A stretch of 49,023 nucleotides of DNA. Origin: Solirubrobacterales bacterium (GTDB lineage: Bacteria; Actinomycetota; Thermoleophilia; Solirubrobacterales; 70-9). Below are positions 29,601 through 35,387 of this stretch, in pieces. The stretch covers positions 1 to 49,023 of the forward strand of contig JAGQUQ010000010.1 of assembly GCA_020438425.1 (NCBI GenBank), written 5' to 3'. Every line of letters starts with the position of its first letter. Position 1 is the stretch's first letter. The notes under the pieces are model-generated. The model worked only from the letters and a program-made list of their open reading frames with translations. It had not been told where the DNA came from and made no database searches. The position numbers were made by a program, and so were the translations under genes.

Positions 29601-30788
29601 TCAGTCGATCCAGGGGCTCCTCTGTGCGGCGTGCGACTCGATGTGAATGCTCTGCAGGACCCCGATCATCAGGAAGGTCGAAATAATCGCCGACCCTCCG
29701 TAGCTCATCAGCGGCAAGGGTATGCCGGTGATCGGCATGATGCCGAGGTTCATTCCCACGTTTACGAAGACCTGGAAGATGATCGCGGCGGCAATTCCGG
29801 CCGCGACCAGGGTTCCGTAGAAATTCTTCGAGAGCGTCATCAGACGCAGCGCCCGCCAGAAGAGCAGGGCGAAAAGGGATAAGACCAGTGCCGCGCCAAC
29901 GAATCCGTAACGCTCGGCGACCACGGCGAAAATGAAGTCCGTGTGCCGCTCGGGAACGAATCCGAAACGGGACTGGGTGGCCTGGTCGCCTCGGCCGGTG
30001 GTTCCACCGGCTCCGATTCCGACCTTGGCCTGATTCTGTTGGTAACCCGCGTCTCCGATGTCGGAGGACGGGCTGAGGAACGACGTGAGCCGTTCCTGCT
30101 GATACTCCTTGAGCACCGGCGTCCCGGCCGCCGGAAGGGCGACCAGCACGAAGGCGACAAAAGCTGCGAGGACGACCCCGATCGCGGCAAGGTGCGACCA
30201 GCGAACGCCGGCCGCGACCATGATCGCGAAAGTTATGCCTGCGAAAACGAGTGACGTGCCGAGGTCCTGAAGCAGGACCAGGCCCGTCGGCACGAGGCCG
30301 AGGCAAAGAATCCGGATCGTCCTTTGACCTTCGGAGCCCCTGCGGGCCCCGTCGATCACGAAACCGGCCAGGGCAAGAATCAACAGCAACTTGCCCAGCT
30401 CGGCCGGCTGGAAGGTGAAGAAGGGAAGTTCAAGTGAATTCGTCGATCCGCGTGCGGCCACGCCAAATGCGAACACCGCGAAGATCGAGGCGCACAGGAA
30501 CGTGTAGATACCGACACGTAGTTCCCTGAAGCGGGAATAGTCGATGCGGGATACGGCAATCATTCCGACGATTCCGACCAAACCATAGAGAGCCTGCCGC
30601 TGAACGTACTGCTCGGGTGCGCCCACGATGTTCGCCGCGGAAGCTTCGTAAAGGGTGTAGAGCGAGCAGGCGAGCAGGCCCAGAGCGGAAAAAGCCAGCC
30701 AGCCGTCCATCCCCGCGAGACCCACCCGCTCGAGCAGGTTGAGGCGCGGTTCCGGGGCCTGCCGGGGAAGGCGCGAGGATTCCATCAC
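29601..30788 (-). CDS. rodA: Peptidoglycan glycosyltransferase RodA (SEDS)
   Basis: 395 aa with about 10 membrane helices. SEDS-family motifs include FTFQPAELGKLLLILALAGFV, LLQDLGTSLVFAGI, VPERHTDFIFAVVAERYGF and the C-terminal GIMPITGIPLPLMSYGGSAII. RodA polymerises glycan strands in side-wall elongation with its partner PBP2, encoded directly upstream. The GTG at 30788 overlaps the mrdA stop by 4 bp. FtsW is the alternative, but the mreCD-mrdA context points to RodA. Confidence 0.94.
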   Translation of the reverse strand: MMESSRLPRQAPEPRLNLLERVGLAGMDGWLAFSALGLLACSLYTLYEASAANIVGAPEQYVQRQALYGLVGIVGMIAVSRIDYSRFRELRVGIYTFLCASIFAVFAFGVAARGSTNSLELPFFTFQPAELGKLLLILALAGFVIDGARRGSEGQRTIRILCLGLVPTGLVLLQDLGTSLVFAGITFAIMVAAGVRWSHLAAIGVVLAAFVAFVLVALPAAGTPVLKEYQQERLTSFLSPSSDIGDAGYQQNQAKVGIGAGGTTGRGDQATQSRFGFVPERHTDFIFAVVAERYGFVGAALVLSLFALLFWRALRLMTLSKNFYGTLVAAGIAAAIIFQVFVNVGMNLGIMPITGIPLPLMSYGGSAIISTFLMIGVLQSIHIESHAAQRSPWID

Positions 30789-32656
30789 TCGACGCTCCCG
30801 GTCCCGCCGGAAACCGCCTTGGCTTGCTTGTCGAAGTAGGCCTGGAGGATCTGAAGGGCGACCGGAGCGGCGGTATCGGCGCCGAAGCCGCCTTCTTCCA
30901 CGGTGACGATCACGGCGATCTCGGGGTTATCGGCTGGTGCCAGCGCGGCGTACCAGGCCTGGTCGGCCTTGGGCTGGCGCTCGGCCGTGCCGGTCTTGCC
31001 CGCAACCTTGACCGGGAACCCGCCGAAGACCTTGTAGGAAGTTCCCTCCGGGGCCTGGGCCGCGTCATGGAGACCGTCCATGATGTCCTGGCGATACGCG
31101 GGGTCCATCTCGAAACTGGAAACGACCTCGGGCTCGGCTTCCTTCAGCACCCGGCCCGCCGCGTCCTCGGTCTGCAGGTAGAGCTGAGGCTTCAGCACGC
31201 TGCCGCCATTGCCCAGTGCGGAATACGCGACCGCCATCTGCAGCGGGCTGGCCTGGAAGTAGCCCTGGCCGATTGCGAACTGGATGTTCTGTCCGATCAC
31301 CCAGGGGTCGTAGTAGTCCGGTTCTTCCTTGTGCGCTTCATTCAGCCACTTCGGGGTCGGCACCAGTCCTTCCGACTCGCCGGGGATGTCGATGCCGGTG
31401 GCCTTGCCGAGCCCGAAGTTTCCGGCCCAGTCCTGAAGCTGCCGGGTTCCGTTCATGTCGGCACCGAGCAGGTAGTAGTAGACGTCCGACGAGACTTCGA
31501 GCGAGCGCCGCAGGTCAACCGGGCCGTGTGCCTGTTTTCCGGCGTTGTCGAATTCCTGGTCGGCGATGGTGATCGTGCCGGCGTCGTTGACCACGTCAGA
31601 GGGCGAGATGTAGCCGCCGTCGAGACCCGCGAGGGCGGTGATCGGCTTGAAGATCGAGCCGACCGGATACTGGCCGCCGATCGCCCGATCGAAGAGCGGC
31701 GCGCCGAGATCCTCGTCGTAGAGGTCGTCGACCTGCTTCTGGGTCAGCGGCCTGGTGAAGATCGAGGGATCGAAGGTCGGGTTCGAGCCGAGCCCGAGCA
31801 CCTGGCCGTTGTTGACGTCCATGGCCACGAAAGCACCGGGAAGGCCGATGCTCTGCAGCGACGTCTCCCCCGCCACCTGGACGTCTTCGTTGATCGAGAG
31901 GCGAATCGAGTCGCCGGGATCGGGCATGGTCGACGGGAGCTGGCTGACGATCCGCCCGGTCGAGTCGACCTGAAGCCGGGTGTCGCCCGGACTGCCGCGA
32001 AGCTCGTCGTCGTAGGTCTGTTCGATCCCGGTCTTGCCGAGCGTGTCGCCGGCCGCCAGGTCCTTGTCCGGGTTCTCTTCGAGGTCCTCGGCGGTCACCT
32101 CGCCGATCGACCCGAGGATGTGGGCGGCGAGGAGACCCTGCGGATACTTCCGCACGAAGATCCGGTTCACCTGGACCTCGGGGAACTCGGCCTGATGTTC
32201 CTGCAGGTAGTAGACGATGTCGTCGTCCACGTCCCGGTCGAGGGTGATCGGGCTGCCCGGCGGATCGTTCTCGATCGAGTCCAGGTACTTGCGCCTGACC
32301 CAGTCGGCGTCGTTCCCGAGAACCTCGCCGACCCTTGTGAATAGTTCGCGCCGCTCGGCCGGCTCGGTCGGAATTTCGATCGGGTCAAGCTGAAGGGCCA
32401 TGCTGGTCCGGTTGTCGACCAGCACGTTTCCGTCGCGGTCCAGGATCCGGCCTCGCGGCGCGGGAACCCTGACTTCGCGGGTCCGGTTCTGGTTTGCCTC
32501 CGCCAGGTACTTGTCCCCGGTCACGATCTGAAGGGACCAGAGCCGGAAGAAGAGGATCCCCAGCAGGATCAGACCGACCGCGCCGATCACGGCGAAGCGC
32601 CTCGACGGCAGGCTCCGCTTCTTTCTGGGTCTGGGGATTACGGGTTCAATTCTCAT
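30785..32656 (-). CDS. mrdA: Penicillin-binding protein 2 (MrdA), elongasome transpeptidase
   Basis: 623 aa: a basic N-terminus, one membrane helix (about 22-45), the dimerisation domain (PRGRILDRDGNVLVDN) and the transpeptidase domain. The SxxK Ser is in YPVGSIFKPI, the SxN-type motif reads SSD (as in other PBP2 proteins) and KTG is in VAGKTGTAER. It cross-links peptidoglycan with RodA during elongation. It overlaps mreD and rodA by 4 bp each. Confidence 0.95.
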   Translation of the reverse strand: MRIEPVIPRPRKKRSLPSRRFAVIGAVGLILLGILFFRLWSLQIVTGDKYLAEANQNRTREVRVPAPRGRILDRDGNVLVDNRTSMALQLDPIEIPTEPAERRELFTRVGEVLGNDADWVRRKYLDSIENDPPGSPITLDRDVDDDIVYYLQEHQAEFPEVQVNRIFVRKYPQGLLAAHILGSIGEVTAEDLEENPDKDLAAGDTLGKTGIEQTYDDELRGSPGDTRLQVDSTGRIVSQLPSTMPDPGDSIRLSINEDVQVAGETSLQSIGLPGAFVAMDVNNGQVLGLGSNPTFDPSIFTRPLTQKQVDDLYDEDLGAPLFDRAIGGQYPVGSIFKPITALAGLDGGYISPSDVVNDAGTITIADQEFDNAGKQAHGPVDLRRSLEVSSDVYYYLLGADMNGTRQLQDWAGNFGLGKATGIDIPGESEGLVPTPKWLNEAHKEEPDYYDPWVIGQNIQFAIGQGYFQASPLQMAVAYSALGNGGSVLKPQLYLQTEDAAGRVLKEAEPEVVSSFEMDPAYRQDIMDGLHDAAQAPEGTSYKVFGGFPVKVAGKTGTAERQPKADQAWYAALAPADNPEIAVIVTVEEGGFGADTAAPVALQILQAYFDKQAKAVSGGTGSVE

Positions 32657-33246
32657 CGGAGTGCCTCGGGACCGTTTCCGGTCGGCGGATCCAGCTCATC
32701 CGGCCAGTGATCCGGCCCGGCGGACCTTCGGCTCGTCGCCGGTTCGCGAATCAGCGCTGGCCTTAGAACACGGTGAATCAGCGCGTAGAGCGGAACCGCC
32801 AGAAGGACACCATAGAAAGTCTGCAGGATGAGGTCGGGCACCAGCGAGGGACTGAGCGATGAATCGAAGCCGACGATGACCGTGTAGAAGCCGAGCATCA
32901 GGTTGGCCCCCAGCGTCGCCAGACCGCAGGCGACCAGCACGGTCGGCCGGTCGACGAAGTCTCCGCGCTCACGGTAGGTCCCGGCCAGGTAGCCGACCGC
33001 CATGAAGATCAGGCAACTGCTGCCGAGCGGACCGTCGGTCATCGCGTCCCCGAGAAAGCCGAAGGTGAATCCGACCGTGGCCCCGATCAGACTGCCGCCG
33101 AGCAGGCCGAAGATCGCCGCGCAGGCAGGCAGTATCCACATCGAGGATCCCAGCAGCTCGACCTGGGAGAAAAAGGCAACCTGGAAGATCGCGAGCAGCA
33201 GGATCAGTCCGATGATCCGGGCGGCCGAGTTCGTCGTGATGATCAT
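32653..33246 (-). CDS. mreD: Rod-shape protein MreD
   Basis: 197 aa with about 5-6 membrane helices. The order (ARIIGLILLLAIFQVAFFSQVELLG, a Gly-rich second helix GLLGGSLIGATVGFTFGFLGD, then TDGPLGSSCLIFMAVGYLAG) is typical of MreD. MreD helps MreC control PBP2-RodA activity. It overlaps mreC and mrdA by 4 bp. The soluble C-terminus is slightly longer than usual (about 40 basic residues). Confidence 0.9.
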   Translation of the reverse strand: MIITTNSAARIIGLILLLAIFQVAFFSQVELLGSSMWILPACAAIFGLLGGSLIGATVGFTFGFLGDAMTDGPLGSSCLIFMAVGYLAGTYRERGDFVDRPTVLVACGLATLGANLMLGFYTVIVGFDSSLSPSLVPDLILQTFYGVLLAVPLYALIHRVLRPALIREPATSRRSAGPDHWPDELDPPTGNGPEALR

Positions 33247-34091
33247 CCGCGGTTGCCTCCGGTCAGGACCTGGAGCGTGTCCAGGTTCCTGAGGTCCGCG
33301 AACGGCCTGAGTTCGACCGACTGGATCGCCTCACGCTCGTCGATCGGCGCGCGACTGATCTCGCCGATCGGTATTCCCCTCGGGTAGAGCGAGGAAAGCC
33401 CTTCGCCCCGCCAGCCGGAGGTGACCACCGTCTGGCCCGCGGAGACGTTCCTGGTTTCGTCGAGGAACTCCAGGACCAGAGTCTCCGGATCCCCGACCTT
33501 GGCCCGGACCACGCCCTGGGCTCCGCCGGGAAGGATTCTCGCGCTGACCGCGCTGGAGGTGTCGGAGATCAGGCTGACCACCGACCCCGAACCGCTGACC
33601 GAACTGATTCGACCGACCAGTCCGTCACCGCTGATCACCGGATCGTTGATCGCGACACCGTCAGAGGAGCCCGCGTTCACGCTGACGGTGGTGAACCAGA
33701 CGGTTGGCGACCGGCCGGTGACGTTGACGGTCACCGGGTCGTAGGAGTCGGGAATCCTGCCCGCTTCTTCCAGGTTGACCAGCTTGCGGAGCTGCCGGTT
33801 GTCTTCGAGTGCGACCTGACCGGCGATGGCGAGCCCGCGGGCTTCCTCGAGTTCCCGCTGGAGCTGGTCCCGCTCACCCCGGGCCTCGAGGGTTTCGTCG
33901 AACCAGTTGACCAGGTCACGAGCCGGCTTCAAAGCCCGTGAAGCTCCGTTGGTGACCGGATCAAGGACTGTTCCCAGCGCTCCCCCTGCCCCGCCCGAGC
34001 CACTTCCGAAAGTGAAGGTGAGCAGCAGGAATCCCAGCACGATGAGGCCGATAAGTACGGCTCTGCGACGTCGGACTTGCTTGCGGTACAC
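33243..34091 (-). CDS. mreC: Rod-shape protein MreC
   Basis: 282 aa from a GTG at 34091 (MYRKQVRRRRAVLIGLIVLGF). The frame is open to an ATG at 34193, but that would add 34 residues unlike MreC and would cover a structured region. Parts: a basic cap, one membrane helix (about 10-29), a coiled coil (about 60-100, ERDQLQRELEEARGLAIAGQVALEDNRQL) and the beta-domain (TVWFTTVSVNAGSSDGVAINDPVISGDGLVGRI). MreC is the periplasmic or extracytoplasmic scaffold that activates PBP2. No mreB lies upstream; maf does. Confidence 0.92.
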   Translation of the reverse strand: MYRKQVRRRRAVLIGLIVLGFLLLTFTFGSGSGGAGGALGTVLDPVTNGASRALKPARDLVNWFDETLEARGERDQLQRELEEARGLAIAGQVALEDNRQLRKLVNLEEAGRIPDSYDPVTVNVTGRSPTVWFTTVSVNAGSSDGVAINDPVISGDGLVGRISSVSGSGSVVSLISDTSSAVSARILPGGAQGVVRAKVGDPETLVLEFLDETRNVSAGQTVVTSGWRGEGLSSLYPRGIPIGEISRAPIDEREAIQSVELRPFADLRNLDTLQVLTGGNRG

Positions 34092-34127: not shown

Positions 34128-34237
34128 AGGGTTGCCCGGAGCGGATTCGCTTCGGACAGGCGACTTTCTCACCTCGGCGAGAAAGCCGTACATCCAGACA
34201 GGTCGCTGCGGGAAGGATTGCAGCCTCGGGCAACCCT
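34128..34237 (-). other. Possible structured leader RNA between maf and mreC
   Basis: An 11-bp perfect inverted repeat, AGGGTTGCCCG with CGGGCAACCCT (34128-34138 and 34227-34237), closes a 110-nt element that lies wholly between the maf stop and the likely mreC start. Read on the minus strand it encloses hairpins GCTGC/GCAGC, a 9-bp stem including CTTTCTC/GAGAAAG (34164-34170 and 34179-34185, one G-U) and AGCG/CGCT. No known riboswitch was recognised. Confidence 0.45.
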
Positions 34238-34257
34238 ACAGAGAGTGTTTCAGGGCT

Positions 34258-34824
34258 TCATAAAGCCAGTTCGGGAGCCAGATCCAGCAACAATCCGACC
34301 GGCAGGCCGATCACGTTGGCGATGTCGCCATCGACGCCGGCCACGAGGGCCGATCCGCGACCCTGGATCGCGTATCCCCCGGCCCGCCCGCGCCACTCAC
34401 CGCTGGCAAGGTAGCGGCCGATTTCCGCTTCACCCAGTTCCCGGAAGCGGACCAGTGACTCGGCGACCCCGGTTCGCTCCTGCCCCGGCCCCGGTCCGAT
34501 GATCGCCAGGCCACTGAGAACGCGGTGGGTCCGCCCCGAAAGACGGTTCAGGTATTCCCGCGCCTCGGCCTCGTCCTTCGGCTTGCCGATGATGGAGTCT
34601 TCGAGCACCACGTCGGTGTCGCAGCCGATCACGAGGCGACCCGGAGCTTCATCGGCAACCGCGCGGGCTTTCAGGAGTGCGTTTTCAAGGACGACTTCGG
34701 CCGGATCCCCCAGCACGATCTCCTCGACTCCCGAGACCCGAACTTCGAACCCGATCCCGATTCGCTCGAGTATCTCCTTCCGCTGCGGCGAGCCGGAAGC
34801 GAGGATGACCCCGGACCGGCTCAC
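34258..34824 (-). CDS. maf: Maf/HAM1-like nucleotide pyrophosphatase
   Basis: 188 aa from a GTG at 34824 that overlaps the tetR stop (GTGA). The start MSRSGVILASGSPQRKEILERIG is the classic Maf nucleotide-binding loop. VIGCDTDVVLEDSIIGKPKDEAEAREYLNRLSGRTH and GGYAIQGRGSALVAGVDGDIANVIGLPV follow. Maf proteins hydrolyse dTTP, UTP and modified nucleotides and are linked to septum control. The common QR-S-W variations cannot be assigned to a subfamily here. In many bacteria maf sits beside mreB or mreC, as here. Confidence 0.92.
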   Translation of the reverse strand: MSRSGVILASGSPQRKEILERIGIGFEVRVSGVEEIVLGDPAEVVLENALLKARAVADEAPGRLVIGCDTDVVLEDSIIGKPKDEAEAREYLNRLSGRTHRVLSGLAIIGPGPGQERTGVAESLVRFRELGEAEIGRYLASGEWRGRAGGYAIQGRGSALVAGVDGDIANVIGLPVGLLLDLAPELAL

Positions 34825-35387
34825 CGGGTCGAGTCTGTCGCCCGGACCAGGGTGTCCATCGCCCTGATCGCCCGGTCGATCTCCGGTTCGGAGCGGACGG
34901 CGATGTTGCCCCACTCGTAGGCCATTCCGATCTGGGTCAGCACGTCGGCGAGCTCGGCTGCCTTTTCGCCTTCCCAGCCGGGGCGGGTCTTCTCGATTTC
35001 GGCTTGAAGTTCCGTGGTGATCGCGGTCGAAACCCCCGAGCCCGGGGCCAGCATCACGCGAAGGCCGAGTTCCGGCTCGGTCTGGATCAGGTGACGCAGA
35101 GGGGCGAACCCGGCCGTGGTGACCATGAAGCGACGCATCCCGTCCAGAATCCGCTCGAGCCCTTCTCCTTCGGCTTCGTCGATCGCGGTACGGATCACCT
35201 CGATCACCATCCCGGAAAGCATTTCCGAGATCAGTTTGTCGCGATCGCCAACCCAGCGGTAGAGGGTGGTCCGTCCGATCCCGAGCTCGAAGGCAAGCGA
35301 CTGCATGTCGACCCGTTCGAGCGCCAGGTAATGGCGACGCGCCAGGCGAATCGCGTCATCGCGCCGGACTTTCTCGGAAACGCCCAC
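34821..35387 (-). CDS. TetR-family transcriptional regulator (QsdR-like)
   Basis: 188 aa from a GTG at 35387. A helix-turn-helix covers about residues 12-55 (MQSLAFELGIGRTTLYRWVGDRDKLISEML). The C-terminal ligand-binding half has ILDGMRRFMVTTAGFAPLRHLIQTEPELGLRVM and FALGV-like helices. The 'YRWVGDRDKL' recognition region resembles QsdR-type TetR regulators; that label is tentative. It overlaps maf by 4 bp. TAGGAT lies 6 nt before the start. Two large inverted repeats lie 60-155 bp upstream and could be its operators. Ligand and targets unknown. Confidence 0.85.
   Translation of the reverse strand: MGVSEKVRRDDAIRLARRHYLALERVDMQSLAFELGIGRTTLYRWVGDRDKLISEMLSGMVIEVIRTAIDEAEGEGLERILDGMRRFMVTTAGFAPLRHLIQTEPELGLRVMLAPGSGVSTAITTELQAEIEKTRPGWEGEKAAELADVLTQIGMAYEWGNIAVRSEPEIDRAIRAMDTLVRATDSTR

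What the first reader, a model, noticed from the sequence alone, without database searches (positions are those of the whole stretch)
34128..34237. Candidate structured RNA leading into mreC
A perfect 11-bp stem (AGGGTTGCCCG/CGGGCAACCCT) closes 88 nt with three inner hairpins, together exactly filling the maf-mreC gap. The 34 codons before the likely mreC start are not MreC-like. This could be a riboswitch or regulatory leader controlling cell-wall elongation, with no known family recognised.
Basis: partly seen in the sequence, partly recalled or inferred. Interest (0 to 1): 0.65.

Follow-up and report, generated by a model that had tools for sequence, protein, structure and literature searches.

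The report
Two-box control element outliving mreB
The stretch in front of the cell-shape gene mreC is not a shared folded RNA switch; it is the last remnant of a lost neighbouring gene (mreB), in which two short DNA words at a fixed distance have been kept, probably because they are a control site for mreC.

Summary
The 110-nt fold exists in this genome (minus strand, -57 kcal/mol, z -5.9), but it is not a conserved RNA. The 11-bp closing stem is only 63% paired in an alignment with seven close relatives. Its left arm overlaps a conserved -10-like TAGGGT, and RNAalifold finds no pair across 15 genus members. What is conserved is sequence: TGCAA(N9)CA and TGAGAAAGTC, starts 51 nt apart in 15 of 18 genus genomes (50 in one; two keep only the second box), while the sequence between and around them is essentially random. 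The source is clear. In sister genera the same boxes, at the same spacing, lie inside the 3' end of intact mreB just upstream of mreC. There they use rare synonymous codons: of 255 amino-acid-invariant codon columns in ten mreB genes, exactly two are codon-invariant with a rare codon, CAA in box 1 and GCA in box 2. MreB itself is absent from all 18 genus genomes. The best reading is a bipartite cis-regulatory element, older than the mreB loss and kept as the gene eroded around it, controlling mreC-mreD-PBP2. A DNA-level operator or internal promoter is favoured over RNA. The factor that reads it is unknown.

The parts
34162..34222 (-). Conserved 61-nt block derived from the 3' coding end of mreB; TGCAA-N46-TGAGAAAGTC
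   Evidence: Pattern hits in 28 of 232 genomes, 26 of them at this site; single copy; gap-free alignment
34218..34222 (-). Box 1 core TGCAA (plus CA at 34207-34208, ten nt further)
   Evidence: Invariant in 15 of 15 aligned genus members and in all 10 intact mreB genes compared from sister genera
34162..34171 (-). Box 2, TGAGAAAGTC (TGGCAGAGTC inside intact mreB)
   Evidence: 8 of 10 positions invariant in 15 genus members; GCA codon invariant in intact mreB
34233..34238 (-). -10-like hexamer TAGGGT (TAGAAT, TACAAT or TATGAT in other genus members), overlapping the left arm of the reported stem; probable transcript start just downstream (inferred)
   Evidence: Read from sequences; no transcript data
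34227..34237 (-). Left arm of the reported 11-bp stem; not conserved as a stem
   Evidence: 62.8% of cells paired, no covariation above shuffles
34128..34138 (-). Right arm of the reported 11-bp stem; 34136-34138 also belong to the competing 3' hairpin
34136..34155 (-). Small hairpin after box 2, kept in the close clade of eight genomes (CCGGRGC/GCYCCGG); weak compensatory support
   Evidence: 91% paired, but covariation not above shuffles
33243..34091 (-). mreC, downstream gene (GTG start)
   Evidence: PF04085, E 2.7e-36
34258..34914 (-). maf, upstream gene (ORF; true start probably inside this interval)
   Evidence: PF02545, E 7.3e-52
32653..33246 (-). mreD-like membrane protein, next gene of the operon
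   Evidence: ORF; position and hydrophobicity only, no Pfam hit
30785..32656 (-). PBP2-like transpeptidase (mrdA)
   Evidence: PF00905 and PF03717

Best explanation
The maf-mreC leader holds a bipartite cis-regulatory element (box 1 TGCAA-N9-CA and box 2 TGNSARAGTC, starts 51 nt apart). It arose inside the 3' coding end of mreB, before mreB was lost. Shown by sequence: the common origin, the synonymous constraint, the retention after mreB loss, the fixed spacing and the absence of a conserved fold. Inferred: it is read on DNA, by a regulator (or as an internal promoter, box 2 being an extended-10-like TGN-SARAGT) that contacts two sites about five helical turns apart, and it sets transcription of mreC-mreD-PBP2. 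After mreB was lost, the mre operon still needed this control, so only the 61-nt unit survived while the rest of the gene eroded.
For: 1) Same two boxes, same 51-nt spacing, in non-coding leaders of the genus and inside intact mreB of sister genera g9 and g11. 2) In ten intact mreB genes, 255 degenerate columns are amino-acid-invariant and 94 codon-invariant; only two of these carry a rare codon (CAA 13.5% of Gln, GCA 3.5% of Ala), and they are the two boxes. Outgroup mreB genes use CAG, and GCC or ACC/ACG, there. 3) MreB is absent from all 18 genus genomes (only DnaK-level hits). The MreC tree puts element carriers in one supported clade and implies separate losses, in the genus ancestor and in G032. 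In G032 the block is 53/61 identical to G025 mreB, with flanks at chance (17/60 and 12/40). 4) Among diverged genus members, identity is 100% in TGCAA and 93% in box 2, against 33% between the boxes and 29% upstream. 5) Box 1 to box 2 spacing is 51 (once 50), while box 2 to mreC ranges 6-104 nt. 6) Single copy per genome. 7) No consensus RNA pair in 15 sequences.
Against: No regulator identified. The TetR gene next to maf in the window is not syntenic in the relatives checked. A -10-like hexamer lies upstream of box 1, so the boxes may be transcribed and act in RNA. Box 2 is a poor -10 (G/C at -12) and is conserved more strictly than a -10 need be. Within the close clade, hairpins around each box are largely preserved. 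Two basal genus members (G008, G016) have lost box 1, and three g11 relatives whose local mreB is gone have lost box 2, so neither box is indispensable everywhere.
Confidence: 0.55

Rival explanations
1. RNA-level element: the boxes act in the mreC 5' leader (and in the mreB mRNA) as a target for an RNA-binding protein, RNase or small RNA, without a conserved fold.
For: In both contexts the boxes are probably transcribed, downstream of a -10-like hexamer and 6-156 nt before the mreC start. In the close clade box 1 sits in a 97.5%-paired hairpin and box 2 in an 83%-paired hairpin.
Against: Fixed 51-nt spacing with free sequence between is unusual for single-stranded targets. No consensus pair across the genus. 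In G002 and G005 box 2 ends only 6 nt before mreC.
Confidence: 0.3
2. Riboswitch or structured leader RNA, as first proposed.
For: z -5.9 in this genome; three inner hairpins are partly kept in the close clade of eight, with a compensatory pair in the central hairpin (U56-A73 to C-G).
Against: Closing stem 62.8% paired, covariation equal to shuffles; no consensus structure across 15 genomes; stability not shared (z -3.15 to +1.03 in the 17 other genus members); no Rfam match; left arm overlaps a conserved -10-like hexamer.
Confidence: 0.06
3. Functionless mreB pseudogene remnant, still decaying.
For: It does derive from mreB (tblastn of G032, E 2.7e-7).
Against: Flanks and middle are near chance identity, the boxes at 93-100%. 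Synonymous constraint was present before the loss. The mreB-less g3, g8, g10 clade keeps nothing of mreB by tblastn.
Confidence: 0.03
4. Protein-coding: an N-terminal extension of MreC or a small ORF.
For: The frame is open upstream of mreC in this genome.
Against: Distance of box 2 to mreC is not constant in frame. Box 2 is kept as nucleotides while the residues change (LAES to LRKS or VRKS). In the mreB frame stops occur in G003, G004 and G005 (sequences).
Confidence: 0.03

Closest known systems
Internal promoters and operators inside the coding region of an upstream operon gene (general class)
   Same: A nucleotide signal overlapping codons of the preceding gene and controlling the next
   Different: Here the host gene is lost in several lineages and the signal persists as a two-box unit; factor unknown
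NrdR-type paired operator boxes (from memory, as an analogy only)
   Same: Two short boxes at a fixed distance of about an integral number of helical turns upstream of an operon
   Different: Different sequence, about five turns instead of about three; no evidence of NrdR; no family membership claimed
Mre operons of cocci that lack mreB but keep mreCD (ovococci, abstract of PMC4607420)
   Same: mreC and mreD kept without mreB
   Different: No embedded element known to me there; different phylum

Membership tests
Riboswitch / conserved structured RNA | Conserved secondary structure supported by covariation | tested here: not met
Riboswitch / conserved structured RNA | Match to a known Rfam family | tested here: not met
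Riboswitch / conserved structured RNA | Ligand-dependent expression | not testable with these tools
   needs probing or a reporter
mreB pseudogene | Homology of the leader with mreB at the syntenic place | tested here: met
   51-nt spacing and identity to the mreB consensus beyond shuffles (p 0.013 or less in each genus member tested)
mreB pseudogene | Neutral, uniform decay | tested here: not met
Cis-regulatory element embedded in coding sequence | Synonymous-site constraint in the host gene | tested here: met
Cis-regulatory element embedded in coding sequence | Retained when the coding function is gone | tested here: met
Cis-regulatory element embedded in coding sequence | Effect on expression of the downstream gene, identified binding factor | not testable with these tools
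   no expression or binding data
Sigma-70 extended -10 promoter (box 2) | TGN-TANNNT | tested here: inconclusive
   TG, A-11 and T-7 present and box 2 lies 6 nt before the mreC start in G002 and G005, but -12 is G/C

The most novel reading that the evidence does not exclude
A dedicated, previously undescribed regulatory module of the elongasome operon whose target site evolved inside mreB, was paid for with rare codons, and was strong enough to persist as an isolated 61-bp unit after independent losses of the bacterial actin gene, read by an unknown factor that measures 51 bp.
Probability: 0.4. Interest if true: 0.7.

Novelty: new variant of a known kind. Interest (0 to 1): 0.52.

Why it matters
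It gives a natural experiment: a regulatory signal hidden in codons can be seen because the gene around it disappeared. It also marks a lineage (Solirubrobacterales genus 67-14 and kin) that lost the bacterial actin MreB but kept mreC, mreD and PBP2 under what looks like the old control. The factor reading the element would be a new regulator of cell-wall elongation and is now directly searchable.

Tried and rejected
Repeat or mobile element: only one copy in the genome. Rfam families at gathering and at E<=10: only chance-level hits. Structured RNA by covariation: rejected. MreC N-terminal extension or small ORF: rejected by frame. Other copies of box 2 (STGAGAAAGTCR) in the genus: about the number given by the reversed control apart from the mreC site. 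Resemblance of box 2 in G003 to a matS-like palindrome: noted from memory, not kept in relatives. Literature: no paper found on mreB or riboswitches in this group.

Full report
Observation. The inverted repeat and fold are real in this genome. On the coding (minus) strand 34128-34237 folds at -57.3 kcal/mol, z -5.91 (plus strand z -4.66). It lies between maf (stop at 34258) and mreC (GTG at 34091), but it does not fill the 166-nt gap exactly. The window is contig C11 of a fragmentary genome, and its nearest named relatives are Solirubrobacterales MAGs, including '67-14'. The sequence is single copy and has no Rfam match.

The fold is not conserved. In an alignment of the window with seven close relatives the 11-bp stem is paired in 62.8% of cells, with covariation equal to shuffles. 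Its left arm contains the hexamer TAGGGT, kept as TAGG[GC]T in all eight and replaced by TAGAAT, TACAAT or TATGAT at varying distance in several more distant genus members. It looks like a -10 element, so most of the left arm would not be transcribed from it (inference). RNAalifold on 15 genus members, aligned without gaps, predicts no pair. The same region in the 17 other genus members has z from -3.15 to +1.03. Within the close clade three small hairpins around the boxes are largely kept; they may be real there, but they are not a genus-wide structure.

What is conserved. Two boxes are invariant or nearly so: TGCAA (with CA ten nt on) and TGAGAAAGTC. Their starts are 51 nt apart in 15 of 18 genus genomes and 50 in one (G004); in G008 and G016 only box 2 remains. 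Among diverged genus members identity is 100% in TGCAA and 93% in box 2, against 33% in positions 18-51 and 29% in the 60 nt upstream. The box 2 to mreC distance varies from 6 to 104 nt. Spacing is therefore constrained while the sequence between is nearly free.

Origin. In sister genera (g9, g11) the same two boxes, with the same spacing, lie in the 3' coding end of intact mreB, which directly precedes mreC (...LLQGLEQRLRDECQMPCQLAESPL...). MreB (PF06723) is missing from all 18 genomes of the genus; at most DnaK-level hits remain. The leader of genus 67-14 is thus the remnant of mreB: identity of the 61-nt block to the mreB consensus exceeds shuffles in every genus member tested. A g9 genome that has lost mreB (G032) keeps this block at 53/61 identity to G025 mreB, with flanks at chance.

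The element is older than the loss. In ten intact mreB genes of g9 and g11, 255 degenerate columns are amino-acid-invariant and 94 codon-invariant. Exactly two of the codon-invariant ones use a rare codon: CAA (13.5% of Gln) in box 1 and GCA (3.5% of Ala) in box 2. These ten genes were picked by their CTGCAA, so CAA is partly built into the sample; GCA is not. One further g11 genome with intact mreB, G072, has CAG and GCG there, so the element is not universal in g11. Outgroup genera use CAG, and GCC or ACC/ACG, at these places. In the genus the box 2 nucleotides persist while the encoded residues would change (LAES to LRKS or VRKS), so selection acts on nucleotides.

Phylogeny. An MreC tree groups g1, g9 and g11 in one supported clade that holds all element carriers. 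mreB is lost in g1, in G032, and locally in G034, G064 and G065 of g11 (G034 has mreB elsewhere; G064 and G065 have none). G034 and G065 keep only box 1 and G064 keeps neither. The separate mreB-less clade g3, g8, g10 has no detectable mreB remnant, which shows that mreB can be erased without trace. The pattern TGCAA-N46-TGVSARAGTC occurs in 28 of 232 Solirubrobacterales genomes; 26 of the hits are this site.

Mechanism (inferred). Strict short words at a strict distance, with free sequence between, fit two contacts of a DNA-binding protein on one face of the helix, or a promoter (box 2 as TGN-SARAGT) with an upstream activator site. In G002 and G005 box 2 ends 6 nt before the mreC start codon, as the -10 of a leaderless message would. 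Against a plain promoter, box 2 has G/C at -12 and is conserved too strictly. RNA-level action cannot be excluded, because an upstream -10-like hexamer probably makes the boxes part of the leader.

Limits. Most genomes are MAGs, some incomplete; gene absence rests on 18 concordant genomes. The sequences are related, so invariance counts are not independent. No expression or binding data exist. The tree is from one protein.

Noticed in passing
Genera g3 (G019), g8 (G024), g10 (G026, G033): A second mreB loss in the same family, with mreC kept and no mreB remnant.
   Followed up: partly
G034:C66:9444-10415 (L093, L150): mreB sits away from mreC, next to a sterol-desaturase-like ORF (by eye); its box 1 codon is still CAA but the box 2 codon is GCC, while the mreC leader keeps only box 1.
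   Followed up: partly
Upstream of mreB in G063, G066, G067, G068, G070 (g11): A conserved stretch around AATTAATCCTGCAAG-N5-GGATTTTCTGCG before the mreB promoter contains the box 1 heptamer CTGCAAG; TTAGC repeats lie upstream in most of them.
   Followed up: no
g9 and g11 maf-mreB gaps: Extended -10-like motif of the form TTTGNRATCATNG upstream of mreB, with a non-T at -12.
   Followed up: no
window 34821-35387 (-): TetR-family gene (PF18598) beside maf, overlapping the listed maf ORF start; not found beside maf in the relatives checked.
   Followed up: partly
window 34136-34155 (-): Small hairpin after box 2 (CCGGRGC/GCYCCGG) kept in the close clade of eight; other genus members seem to have unrelated hairpins at a similar place.
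   Followed up: partly
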